Source of the DNA: an uncultured Lachnospiraceae bacterium | Lineage (GTDB): Bacteria; Bacillota; Clostridia; Lachnospirales; Lachnospiraceae | Assembly: GCA_947169235.1 (NCBI GenBank) | Contig: CAMVOY010000002.1 | Span: forward strand, 19,542 to 83,541 | DNA: 64,000 nucleotides | Reading direction: 5' to 3' | Shown here: positions 11,842 to 43,441 of the stretch, in pieces | How positions within the stretch are numbered: the first letter of the stretch is position 1 | How the letters are laid out: every line of letters starts with the position of its first letter | Notes under the pieces: model-generated | The model's database searches: none | The model's input: only the letters and a program-made list of their open reading frames with translations | What the model was told of the DNA's origin: nothing | Program-made: the position numbers and the translations under genes

Positions 11842-11877
11842 GGTCAACGAATTATTATGATTTGTTGACCTTTTTCC
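11842..11877 (+). terminator. Intrinsic terminator of rplS
   Basis: GGTCAACGAAT and ATTTGTTGACC form an 11-base-pair stem followed by TTTTTCC. Confidence 0.92.
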
Positions 11878-11914: not shown

Positions 11915-12550
11915 ATGAATCTCCGATTCGAGGAAGAGGCTAAGAAGGAAAAAAGAAAAAAGCTGATATATGAAACGATAAGATATCTGATATATGTTGT
12001 AATCGTTATCTTTTTTGCATGGTGCATTATTAACCTCTGCCTGAAAAAGGTCACAATGATCGGTTCTTCCATGGAAAACACACTCCACAGTGGGCAGGAG
12101 ATCATAGTCAACACATTTTTTAAAAGATTTGTGTCACCGGGCAGAAACTCAGTCATAGCATTTTTTCCGGAAACAGGAGCTGACAATAAAGAAAGAACGG
12201 ATTCATCGATCCTGATAAGAAGGATTGTCGGTCTTCCCGGAGAAAGAGTAAAGATATCGGGAGGCTATGTCTACATTAATGGCAAAAAGCTCGAAGAGGA
12301 TTATGAGTTCGACAGAAATGTATCATCCGGGCAGGCTGATCAGGAAGTGAGCCTTAAGGATAATGAGTATTTTGTACTTAGTGATAAAAGGACTGATCTG
12401 GATGACAGCAGGAGTTCGAGTTTTACGAAGGTAATAAGCGATAATATAATAGGTACTGTTATTCTCCAGTTGGATCCGTTTGGATTTATTGCAGGTCCTG
12501 AGCCTGATAAAACCGAATCCGATGAAGACGAGGAGAAATCAGAGGAGTGA
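11915..12550 (+). CDS. Signal peptidase I-like protein with altered catalytic residues
   Basis: The 211-residue protein has a cytoplasmic basic start, one membrane segment (about 25-42) and an S26-type peptidase fold. The nucleophile motif IGSSMENTL (Ser52) is intact. The conserved catalytic Lys in the usual (I/V)KR(V/I)IGLPG motif is Arg here (LIRRIVGLPGE, Arg102). The GDNRxxSxDSR box is also degenerate (SDKRTDLDDSR, 156-166). It is either catalytically dead, working by altered chemistry, or helping another LepB. An intact lepB lies two genes downstream. It starts a four-gene run with rbgA, lepB and a CYTH gene. Confidence 0.8.
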   Translation: MNLRFEEEAKKEKRKKLIYETIRYLIYVVIVIFFAWCIINLCLKKVTMIGSSMENTLHSGQEIIVNTFFKRFVSPGRNSVIAFFPETGADNKERTDSSILIRRIVGLPGERVKISGGYVYINGKKLEEDYEFDRNVSSGQADQEVSLKDNEYFVLSDKRTDLDDSRSSSFTKVISDNIIGTVILQLDPFGFIAGPEPDKTESDEDEEKSEE

Positions 12551-12557
12551 GCATTTA

Positions 12558-13415
12558 ATGCATTTTCAATGGTTTCCGGGTCACATGACTAAGGCGATCA
12601 GATCCATGAAGGAGGAGATTCGCCTTATTGATATCGTGATCGAGCTGATAGATGCAAGGATCCCCGTAAGTTCAAGGAATCCAGAGATAGATACTTTGGC
12701 GCAGGGCAAAACCAGGATCCTGCTTTTAAACAAGACTGATATGGCTGATAAGTCTCAGACCGATAAATGGGTTGAGTATTTTGAGTCAAAGGGCTTATAT
12801 GCGCTTTCTATCAATGCAAAAAAGAAACAGGATCTAAGCAGAGTAAACAGACTGATTGATGAGGCTGTACGTATAAAACGGGAAAAGGATCTCAAACGAG
12901 GGATTAAAAATCGCCCTGTACGTGCCATGATCGTCGGCATTCCGAATGTCGGAAAATCCACTTTCATAAACAGTTTTTCCGGACGGGCATCTACCAAAAC
13001 CGGCAATAAACCCGGAGTTACAAAGGGAAAGCAGTGGATAAGGCTTTCAGGCGGCAAAAATGGTGGTAGTGTAGAGTTACTGGATACACCCGGGATTCTA
13101 TGGCCGAAGTTTGAAGACCAGACAGTCGGGCTTCATCTGGCTTGGATCGGCTCGATAAAAGATGAATTGATAGTAAGCACCGATCTTGCTTTGGATCTGA
13201 TCGAGTTTTTGGAGACGGAGCATAAGGGTGTAATAAGTGAACATTATGGATTTGAGCCGGAGGGCGATTCTGTTCATATTTTGGAACAGCTGGCCGCTGC
13301 TCGTGGCTGTAAAGCTCGTGGCGGCGAGCCTGACTTTGATAAAGCGGCATTTTTCCTGCTTGATGATTTCAGAAATGCCAGGCTCGGAAGTATAACGATT
13401 GAATGTGTTTCCTGA
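12558..13415 (+). CDS. rbgA: Ribosome biogenesis GTPase RbgA (YlqF)
   Basis: The start at 12558 (MHFQWFPGHM) follows GAGGAG; the track start at 12480 lies inside the preceding gene. The 285-residue protein has the circularly permuted GTPase order: G4 LLLNKTDMAD first, then G1 GIPNVGKSTFIN and G3 DTPGI. RbgA completes assembly of the 50S subunit, acting late around L16. Placement near rplS and a signal peptidase gene is conserved in Firmicutes. Confidence 0.95.
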   Translation: MHFQWFPGHMTKAIRSMKEEIRLIDIVIELIDARIPVSSRNPEIDTLAQGKTRILLLNKTDMADKSQTDKWVEYFESKGLYALSINAKKKQDLSRVNRLIDEAVRIKREKDLKRGIKNRPVRAMIVGIPNVGKSTFINSFSGRASTKTGNKPGVTKGKQWIRLSGGKNGGSVELLDTPGILWPKFEDQTVGLHLAWIGSIKDELIVSTDLALDLIEFLETEHKGVISEHYGFEPEGDSVHILEQLAAARGCKARGGEPDFDKAAFFLLDDFRNARLGSITIECVS

Positions 13416-13431
13416 AAACGGAGGTTTATAT

Positions 13432-14610
13432 ATGAGTGATTTTGATCGCGATGCTTTGTTCTCCGATATTGATAAGATAATGGAACAACAGGGTTTTTCA
13501 AATATAGGTTCCTCATCAATGCCGGTAGAGATTGAGGCTACGGATGAGCCCGAATCCGAAAATATGGCTACCATTCAGCCTCATGAGCTGGATATGATCG
13601 AGCGTGTGGTGAATCCGGAGCTTGCTGCCAAACGCGTTGAGTTAGAACTGGAAACGCAGGAAGAGCTGATGGAGGCTCAGCCTTTAGATGATCAGCAGAT
13701 AAATGTCGGGCAGACTTTTCCTGAACCTGTCGCTGCAAGCGCTCCTACGGTAAACGATGCAGAAGAAGAGAGCATGGAACCTGATGTAGTATCATTGTCT
13801 CTTGAAAAGCCGGTCTCACCAAATTATGAAGATATGGTTGAACCTGAGGTCAATTTAACAAGGTCAGAACCGGTTTCACCAGATAAGTTTACGACCATTG
13901 AAAAACCAATGGAATGGTCGTTAGGAAGTGAATCCAAGTCAGGCGAGGAACAGAAGTCAGAGAATTATGTACCTCCGGTTTCTTATCTTGAGGAGGCATC
14001 ATCTGATGGAATACAGGTTGAAAATGTTGCATTCGGTGATATATCCGTAGGTGTGGAAACTGAGAGCGTCGAGTTTTCTGTAGGTCATCCGTTTATCAGG
14101 TTATTTAGAAATATTCTGATCGTGGTGGCGTTAGCTCTTGTGATCTCTTTGTTTATCACAAAGTTTATTGCATCTCACACGTCAGTTGACGGCTCATCAA
14201 TGTCACCAACACTTACAAGTGGCGATCAACTGATAGTAGAGAAGTTCAGCTATTATTTCCATGATCCCGAAAGATTTGATATTGTGGTATTCCCGATCTC
14301 AACTGAGGATGACTATATTAAACGTGTCATAGGTCTTCCGGGGGAAACTGTTCAGATAGTGAACGGACAGGTATACATAAACGGAAATTTGCTTACAGAC
14401 GACAGATACGGAGCTGAGATCATCGAGGATCCGGGAACAGCTGCGGATACAATATTTCTTCAGCCCGATGAGTATTTTGTTCTCGGAGACAACAGAAATG
14501 CGAGTGTGGACAGCCGTTTCCCTGAGGTTGGACTGATCCATAAGAAAGATATAGAAGGAAGAGCATGGTTAAGGTTTTATCCATTTGGCTCTTTTGGTTT
14601 GGTTAACTGA
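13432..14610 (+). CDS. lepB: Signal peptidase I with long acidic N-terminal extension
   Basis: I start at 13432 (MSDFDRD) after ACGGAGG. The 392-residue protein is about twice normal LepB length. Residues 1-220 form an acidic, low-complexity, probably cytoplasmic region. One membrane segment follows (about 225-245), then the catalytic domain with Ser256 (VDGSSMSPT), Lys297 (DDYIKRVIGLPGE) and GDNRNASVDSR. It should cleave signal peptides at the outer membrane face. The acidic extension is not part of the family core, and its role is unknown. Confidence 0.92.
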   Translation: MSDFDRDALFSDIDKIMEQQGFSNIGSSSMPVEIEATDEPESENMATIQPHELDMIERVVNPELAAKRVELELETQEELMEAQPLDDQQINVGQTFPEPVAASAPTVNDAEEESMEPDVVSLSLEKPVSPNYEDMVEPEVNLTRSEPVSPDKFTTIEKPMEWSLGSESKSGEEQKSENYVPPVSYLEEASSDGIQVENVAFGDISVGVETESVEFSVGHPFIRLFRNILIVVALALVISLFITKFIASHTSVDGSSMSPTLTSGDQLIVEKFSYYFHDPERFDIVVFPISTEDDYIKRVIGLPGETVQIVNGQVYINGNLLTDDRYGAEIIEDPGTAADTIFLQPDEYFVLGDNRNASVDSRFPEVGLIHKKDIEGRAWLRFYPFGSFGLVN

Positions 14611-42727: not shown

Positions 42728-43441
42728 CTAGTTTACAAATCCAAACTTGTTCAATGGCCATATTCTCATGAAAGCCTTGCCCTCTATAAAGCTTCTTTTT
42801 ACAGGACCCGGCGCATCTTCCTCGGCCATTTCATCAAGCTCATCTTCTGAATATTTATCTGCGTATTTTTCAATGGTTTCAGGAGGAATCTTTCTACTGT
42901 CAAGCGATACCGCTCTGTTATCTCCCAAAACAAAGTACTCATCTTCTTTTAATGTGTAACCTTTTGCTGCCAGGCCTTCCTCATCCATGGCGTTCTTGGC
43001 GTATTTATCCTCGATAACCTGGCCATTCACCTTGATCGTATTCTTTTCGATCTGAATTGTCTCACCCGGCAAACCATATACTCTCTTTATATAAAACTCA
43101 GAGTCATCAACTTCTTTACCCTTTGGATAGAAAACTACTATATCATATCTTTCAGGATCATGGAAGGCATAGGATATTTTATCTATGAGAAGCCTCTCGC
43201 CATCATGAAGAGTGTCCTCCATGGATTCACCGGATACATTGGTCGACTGACAAACATATCTGGGAACTACATATACACATACAAATATCAGGACAATGTA
43301 TATTCCAATCTCAATTCCGATACTGAGTTTCGATCTTGATTTTGTTTCTTCTTCCTTTTTTTCGACGGGTTTTGAGGTATTTACATCATCAAAGTCCTCA
43401 ACCACGACGAAATCGTCTCTGTCTTCAATATTACCGGTCAT
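42728..43441 (-). CDS. lepB: Signal peptidase I
   Basis: The 237-residue protein has an acidic then basic cytoplasmic start (1-40), a membrane segment (about 41-60), Ser73 in VSGESMEDTL, Lys119 in FYIKRVYGLPGE and GDNRAVSLDSR. All catalytic residues are present. It is the third LepB-like protein of the window and the second that looks active. It sits between gmk and rpoZ on the same strand. Confidence 0.94.
   Translation of the reverse strand: MTGNIEDRDDFVVVEDFDDVNTSKPVEKKEEETKSRSKLSIGIEIGIYIVLIFVCVYVVPRYVCQSTNVSGESMEDTLHDGERLLIDKISYAFHDPERYDIVVFYPKGKEVDDSEFYIKRVYGLPGETIQIEKNTIKVNGQVIEDKYAKNAMDEEGLAAKGYTLKEDEYFVLGDNRAVSLDSRKIPPETIEKYADKYSEDELDEMAEEDAPGPVKRSFIEGKAFMRIWPLNKFGFVN

What the first reader, a model, noticed from the sequence alone, without database searches (positions are those of the whole stretch)
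11915..12550. Signal peptidase homologue lacking the catalytic lysine
Ser52 is present, but the Lys of the Ser-Lys dyad is Arg102 (LIRRIVGLPG), and GDNR has become SDKR. The frame and fold are otherwise intact, so it is not an obvious pseudogene. Two intact LepB proteins are encoded nearby. It may be a regulatory pseudo-peptidase.
Basis: partly seen in the sequence, partly recalled or inferred. Interest (0 to 1): 0.5.

Follow-up and report, generated by a model that had tools for sequence, protein, structure and literature searches.

The report
Conserved catalytically dead signal peptidase
A gut/rumen bacterium of the family Lachnospiraceae keeps, next to its working signal peptidase, a sister protein whose protein-cutting site has been dismantled but whose sequence is still tightly preserved, and the same thing has happened repeatedly in related bacteria, so the dead copy very probably has a non-cutting job.

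Summary
ORF 11915-12550 is a type I signal peptidase (S26) homologue with Ser52, Arg102 in place of the general-base Lys, and SDKR in place of GDNR. It lies in rplS-X-ylqF-lepB. All 34 orthologues aligned (33 from this genus, one from its sister genus), plus two read separately, have Arg at position 102. The nucleophile varies freely (22 Ala, 10 Ser, Thr, Val; at least 5 changes on the tree), and the Gly272-equivalent is Ser/Cys in 33/34. dN/dS is 0.01-0.07 in close pairs, as low as for the intact LepB next door. So it is not a strain-specific loss or a pseudogene, but a conserved pseudo-signal-peptidase. In an unbiased sample of 110 Lachnospiraceae loci the same slot mostly keeps Ser-Lys; Lys is lost in 13, by at least 9 changes on the tree, always to Arg. 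All 11 other loss genomes checked have another intact signal peptidase. Most likely it acts as a membrane-anchored, non-catalytic binding partner in secretion; which partner is inferred, not shown. Inactive relatives are known (S. aureus SpsA, S. pyogenes SipA), so this is a new lineage of a known kind.

The parts
11915..12550 (+). Pseudo-signal peptidase gene (211 aa): N-terminal membrane helix, then extracytoplasmic S26 fold
   Evidence: AlphaFold2 model mean pLDDT 91.9, pTM 0.83, helix 2-42 then beta domain; best PDB matches SpsB, SipA and E. coli SPase I
12068..12070 (+). Ser52 codon, nucleophile position; Ala/Thr/Val in 24 of 34 aligned orthologues
12218..12220 (+). Arg102 codon at the general-base Lys position; Arg in 34/34 aligned orthologues
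12380..12391 (+). SDKR in place of GDNR (box E); Ser156 replaces the glycine equivalent to E. coli Gly272, which packs against the catalytic Lys
   Evidence: role of Gly272 from PMC4049620
11470..11817 (+). rplS (ribosomal protein L19), upstream neighbour conserved across the order
11842..11870 (+). Intrinsic-terminator-like hairpin (13 pairs, then TTTTT) between rplS and the pseudo-peptidase gene
   Evidence: consensus match only
12558..13415 (+). ylqF/rbgA-type ribosome-assembly GTPase, starting 7 bases after the pseudo-peptidase stop codon
13399..14610 (+). Intact LepB (start probably at 13432) with a long N-terminal extension of about 200 aa; Ser-Lys dyad and GDNR present
42728..43441 (-). 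Second intact signal peptidase I of the genome (GESM, IKRV, GDNR)

Best explanation
The gene encodes a membrane-anchored type I signal peptidase homologue that has lost proteolysis and been kept for a non-catalytic role. It descends from an active LepB that occupies the rplS-lepB-ylqF slot in most Lachnospiraceae. In the common ancestor of this genus and its sister genus the general-base Lys became Arg. Later the Gly272-equivalent became Ser/Cys, the Ser278-equivalent was lost, and the nucleophilic Ser was exchanged freely. Cutting is done by the intact LepB encoded 0.85 kb downstream and by a third homologue. I infer that the dead protein still binds at the outer face of the membrane, either an exported protein's signal-peptide region or the active LepB/Sec machinery, and so assists, delays or scaffolds processing, as proposed for SipA. 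SHOWN: homology, predicted fold, loss of the catalytic set, strong purifying selection, conserved gene order, repeated parallel losses. INFERRED: absence of activity in this particular protein, retained peptide or partner binding, and the link to LepB.
For: Arg102 in 34/34 aligned orthologues plus two more read separately. Nucleophile 22 Ala, 10 Ser, 1 Thr, 1 Val with at least 5 Ser/other changes on the genus tree. Gly272-equivalent Ser/Cys in 33/34 and Ser278-equivalent mostly Leu/Met/Thr/Gln, while the co-encoded LepB keeps Gly, Ser and Lys in every row that covers them. dN/dS 0.012-0.073 in close pairs, similar to or below the active LepB. Gene order rplS-X-ylqF-lepB kept through the genus. 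Parts of the cleft are kept: Met53 34/34, Leu57 33/34, hydrophobic residue at 101 (Ile/Phe); Asp164, Ser165, Arg166 also 34/34. Residues invariant here but not in active paralogues: Asn2, Leu3, Glu20, Ala82, Arg102, Asp161, Phe170, Pro195, which suggests a constraint of its own. In 110 rplS-anchored Lachnospiraceae loci, 13 lost Lys, all to Arg, by at least 9 changes; all 11 other loss genomes keep an intact SPase. Fold matches include the inactive SipA at target-normalised TM 0.75.
Against: No assay; the Ser that remains in this species could in principle act with Arg. No partner identified, and no complex prediction was possible. The peptide cleft is not simply conserved: position 82 is always Ala instead of Val, position 99 is I/L/V instead of polar, and position 101 is Phe in 10/34, so signal-peptide binding is a guess. 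Loss of Lys in slot 1 does not require a LepB in slot 2 nearby: about half of the loss loci have none within the 5 kb read. SpsA of S. aureus, a similar case, is dispensable (PMC12445088).
Confidence: 0.6

Rival explanations
1. A still-active protease with a changed mechanism: Ser52 works with Arg102 (or another base) on a special substrate.
For: Ser52 is present in this species and nine of the other aligned orthologues, and several other lineages are Ser/Arg. Loss of Lys always goes to Arg in the unbiased sample, which keeps the charge. From memory, not tested: in the related LexA fold an Arg at the base position allows slow cleavage at high pH.
Against: 22 of 34 orthologues have Ala and one Val at the nucleophile under the same fixed Arg, with at least 5 switches on the tree. 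The Gly that makes room for the base is Ser/Cys in 33/34.
Confidence: 0.08
2. A pseudogene, recent inactivation or assembly error.
For: Most genera of the family keep Ser-Lys in the same slot (95 of 109 rows; one search gives 97 of 110 with Lys).
Against: Arg is fixed through the genus; dN/dS 0.01-0.07; intact frames in the orthologues used; conserved synteny.
Confidence: 0.02
3. A SipA-type assembly factor for a sortase-dependent surface polymer rather than a partner of LepB.
For: SipA is the closest solved inactive homologue by fold (TM 0.75) and is essential for pilus polymerisation (PMC4049620). The genome encodes one sortase.
Against: The gene sits among rplS, ylqF and lepB, and the sortase is on another contig with no pilin gene seen beside it. 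SipA has Asp and Gly at the dyad positions, not Ser/Ala and Arg.
Confidence: 0.08
4. A decoy that sequesters signal peptides or LepB and lowers processing (negative regulator), rather than helping it.
For: Same anatomy as the best explanation: membrane anchor, SPase fold, partly kept cleft, proximity to lepB.
Against: No evidence for direction of effect; a pure inhibitor kept at such low dN/dS across a genus would need a regulatory switch, none seen.
Confidence: 0.2

Closest known systems
Staphylococcus aureus SpsA (inactive SPase I homologue in a genome with active SpsB)
   Same: Inactive type I SPase homologue in a genome with an active SPase; lacks catalytic residues (PMC12445088); function unsettled, although one screen reported a contribution to phagosomal escape (PMC5025175)
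   Different: SpsA lacks both catalytic residues; here Arg is fixed at the base position while the nucleophile varies. Here ylqF lies between the dead and the active gene, in the locus rplS-X-ylqF-lepB. The SpsA sequence was not compared directly.
Streptococcus pyogenes SipA/LepA
   Same: SPase fold with a broken dyad and with the Gly272-equivalent replaced (Asn there, Ser/Cys here); fold match TM 0.75
   Different: Encoded in a pilus operon with a class B sortase, dyad positions Asp/Gly, required for pilus polymerisation (PMC4049620); none of this context is present here
Active LepB/SPase I of the rplS-lepB-ylqF slot in other Lachnospiraceae
   Same: Same slot, same fold, homologous sequence
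   Different: Ser-Lys dyad kept in 95 of 109 rows

Membership tests
Type I signal peptidase family (Pfam PF10502, TIGR02227, S26) | Sequence homology over the whole domain above curated cut-off | tested here: met
   103.1 bits against 22.9; 91.3 against 47
Type I signal peptidase family (Pfam PF10502, TIGR02227, S26) | SPase I fold with N-terminal membrane anchor | tested here: met
   AF2 pLDDT 91.9, helix 2-42; Foldseek hits SpsB 2.1e-8, E. coli SPase I 1.5e-6
Active signal peptidase I | Ser nucleophile | tested here: inconclusive
   Present in this species, absent in 24 of 34 orthologues
Active signal peptidase I | General-base Lys | tested here: not met
   Arg in 34/34
Active signal peptidase I | Box E GDNR with the Gly that accommodates the Lys | tested here: not met
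   SDKR here; Ser/Cys at the Gly position in 33/34
Active signal peptidase I | Cleaves preproteins | not testable with these tools
   Needs an assay
SpsA-like inactive SPase homologue beside an active one | Broken dyad and linked active SPase | tested here: met
   Intact LepB 0.85 kb downstream throughout the genus where the contig continues
SpsA-like inactive SPase homologue beside an active one | Orthology to SpsA | not tested
   SpsA sequence not fetched; losses of the dyad are independent in many lineages
SipA/LepA pilus assembly factor | Encoded with class B sortase and pilins | tested here: not met
   Only sortase found is on another contig; neighbours are rplS, ylqF, lepB

The most novel reading that the evidence does not exclude
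The dead homologue and the neighbouring LepB form a hetero-oligomeric signal peptidase in Lachnospiraceae, a bacterial counterpart of multi-subunit signal peptidase complexes, and the repeated Lys-to-Arg change is the recurrent first step by which a duplicated LepB is turned into a non-catalytic subunit.
Probability: 0.15. Interest if true: 0.65.

Novelty: new member of a known kind. Interest (0 to 1): 0.42.

Why it matters
Inactive signal peptidase homologues are known in pathogens (SpsA, SipA), but what SpsA does is unsettled. A gene family in common gut and rumen bacteria where the dyad has been lost at least nine times at one locus, always through Arg in the unbiased sample, and where one genus keeps the dead form under strong selection, gives a natural comparative system for asking what a signal peptidase does without cutting. 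It also warns that 'signal peptidase I' annotations at the rplS-ylqF locus of Lachnospiraceae are often wrong about activity (roughly one locus in nine in the sample).

Tried and rejected
Strain-specific loss, pseudogene and assembly error were rejected. Absence of the gene in some genomes of the genus was checked: in G007, G010 and G016 the contig ends before the slot. The genome-contig scan could not be used for frequencies because its search patterns favour RR..GLPGE, so the frequency was measured with an rplS anchor instead. A link between slot-1 loss and presence of a slot-2 lepB nearby was looked for by eye and not seen. A pseudo-specific N-terminal motif (MNLxFEE) was considered, but related active slot-1 proteins carry similar N termini such as MGYNFE or MKYDFD. 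A sortase/pilus link was not supported. Literature searches for pseudo-signal-peptidases in Lachnospiraceae or clostridia found nothing relevant in the held library. The first structure model, from a shallow alignment, was poor (pLDDT 71) and was replaced.

Full report
OBSERVATION. The ORF at 11915-12550 (+) encodes 211 aa. It matches Peptidase_S26 (2.1e-29) and TIGR02227 sigpep_I_bact. By sequence the nearest solved structures are signal peptidases: 4me8 (2.9e-12), SpsB and 4nv4 (organisms of 4me8 and 4nv4, E. faecalis and B. anthracis). Aligned with active paralogues, Ser52 is on the nucleophile column, Arg102 on the general-base Lys column and SDKR on GDNR. The genome holds three S26 genes, all in this window: this one, LepB at 13399-14610 and a third at 42728-43441 (-); the other two have an intact dyad.

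IDENTITY OF THE ORGANISM. The window is part of contig C2 of a 2.37 Mb draft genome. Named relatives in the genus are 'Lachnospiraceae bacterium P6B14' (90% identity in this protein), Eubacterium xylanophilum ATCC 35991 and many rumen/gut metagenome bins.

CONSERVATION IN THE GENUS. Searching 61 genomes gave orthologues at the same locus. Thirty aligned proteins have Arg at position 102 without exception. With the named loci and the sister genus the count is 34/34, and two more read separately also have Arg. The nucleophile is Ala in 22, Ser in 10, Thr in 1 and Val in 1, with at least 5 Ser/other switches on a 34-row tree. The position equivalent to E. coli Gly272 is Ser (23) or Cys (10); only the sister-genus protein (L064, same locus as L233) keeps Gly. 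Gly272 sits against the catalytic Lys, any side chain there would clash with it, and it is also replaced in the inactive SipA (PMC4049620). The Ser278-equivalent, which stabilises the Lys, is mostly Leu, Met, Thr or Gln. In the same genomes the downstream LepB has Ser, Lys, Gly and Ser in every row that covers these columns. The whole catalytic set, not only Lys, has decayed, and the order can be read: Arg first (shared with the sister genus), then the Gly, with the Ser drifting afterwards.

SELECTION. In pairs of species close enough to measure, dN/dS of the gene is 0.012-0.073 (for example 0.066 between this genome and P6B14), about the same as or lower than for the catalytic domain of the active LepB in most of the same pairs (in the P6B14 pair LepB is lower, 0.023). 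In more distant pairs, where dS is near saturation, the values are higher and less reliable. The protein is therefore maintained. Residues invariant in the dead lineage but not in active paralogues are Asn2, Leu3, Glu20, Ala82, Arg102, Asp161, Phe170 and Pro195; these are candidates for its own function.

LOCUS AND ORIGIN. The order rplS-S26-ylqF-S26 holds through the genus wherever the contig continues; three genomes that seemed to lack the gene have contig ends there. To see how common the loss is without bias from the sequence itself, I located rplS in 147 genomes of the order and 120 of the family, fetched the DNA downstream of a subset and classified every S26 gene. In the family, slot 1 (between rplS and ylqF) is Ser/Lys in 95, Ala/Arg in 6, Ser/Arg in 6 and Ala/Lys in 2. 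Slot 2 (after ylqF) is Ser/Lys in 73 of 75; one exception, L214, is Ser/Arg there while its slot 1 is Ser/Lys. Outside the family slot 1 is Ser/Lys in 47 of 49. On a tree built with the trait columns masked, the 110 unbiased rows (including this window) show 13 Lys losses by at least 9 changes, all to Arg; a larger set enriched for losses needs at least 18 changes. If Lys codons changed by single bases without selection, Arg would be expected in about 22-27% of cases, so nine of nine is unlikely; amino-acid conservatism also favours Arg, so this is a hint of a kept positive charge next to the invariant Asp164, not proof. Many inner branches of these trees are weak, so the number of events is approximate. 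All 11 other genomes with a dead slot 1 carry at least one intact Ser/Lys signal peptidase elsewhere. One group (Bacterium D16-51 and relatives) went further, with Tyr/Asp/Glu and Glu/Asp/Ala/Gln at the two positions.

STRUCTURE. With 129 homologues AlphaFold2 gives a confident model (mean pLDDT 91.9, pTM 0.83): one long N-terminal helix (2-42) and then the SPase beta domain. Foldseek against the PDB returns SpsB (2.1e-8), the inactive S. pyogenes SipA (1.2e-6, TM 0.75 by target length) and E. coli SPase I. Mapped on the SpsB-peptide structure (PMC4704075), the cleft is partly kept (Met53 34/34, Leu57 33/34, hydrophobic 48 and 101 in most) and partly changed (Ala82 instead of Val, hydrophobic 99 instead of polar, Phe101 in 10 of 34).

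MECHANISM. Shown: a dismantled catalytic set, a kept fold and membrane anchor, strong purifying selection, conserved linkage to ylqF and an active LepB. Inferred: no proteolysis by this protein, and a retained binding role at the outer membrane face, toward signal peptides or toward LepB/Sec. Whether it helps or restrains processing cannot be told from sequence. A Ser/Arg protease is disfavoured because most orthologues have Ala at the nucleophile. A SipA-like pilus role is not supported by context: the one sortase is on another contig.

COMPARISON. Inactive signal peptidase homologues are known: SpsA of S. aureus, which lacks two catalytic residues and is dispensable (PMC12445088) but was linked to phagosomal escape in one screen (PMC5025175), and SipA of S. 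pyogenes (PMC4049620). This lineage is of the same general kind. What I did not find described in the held library is the Lachnospiraceae lineage itself and the repeated parallel loss through Arg at one conserved locus. That library lacks most subscription papers, so absence there is weak evidence.

Noticed in passing
13399-14610: The active LepB has an N-terminal extension of about 200 residues before its membrane helix. Long extensions with short conserved motifs at the start (FDRDALFSDIDKI or IEESLRICEEL) occur in most LepB proteins of the genus; function unknown.
   Followed up: partly
11842-11870: Terminator-like hairpin between rplS and the pseudo-peptidase gene, with no promoter-like match on the + strand between it and the start codon.
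   Followed up: no
L214 (slot 2) and L102 (second S26): Swapped state: slot 1 keeps Ser/Lys while the S26 gene after ylqF has Ser/Arg, so the dead copy can arise on either side.
   Followed up: partly
L072, L076-L079, L082, L084, L090, L092, L097, L099, L112: Bacterium D16-51 group: slot-1 homologues with Tyr/Asp/Glu at the nucleophile and Glu/Asp/Ala/Gln at the base position, still with EYFVLCDNR.
   Followed up: no
L173, L174, L175: Outside the family, S26 genes near rplS have Ser at the base position (SS, AS, TS), so dyad loss is not confined to Lachnospiraceae or to Arg.
   Followed up: no
L222: The rplS-lepB-ylqF genes appear twice in opposite orientation with frameshifts near a contig end, probably an assembly artefact.
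   Followed up: no
L228 (third S26, at 2468): A further degenerate S26 copy after the active slot-2 gene, with the nucleophile motif destroyed (DNGVK) and Arg at the base.
   Followed up: no
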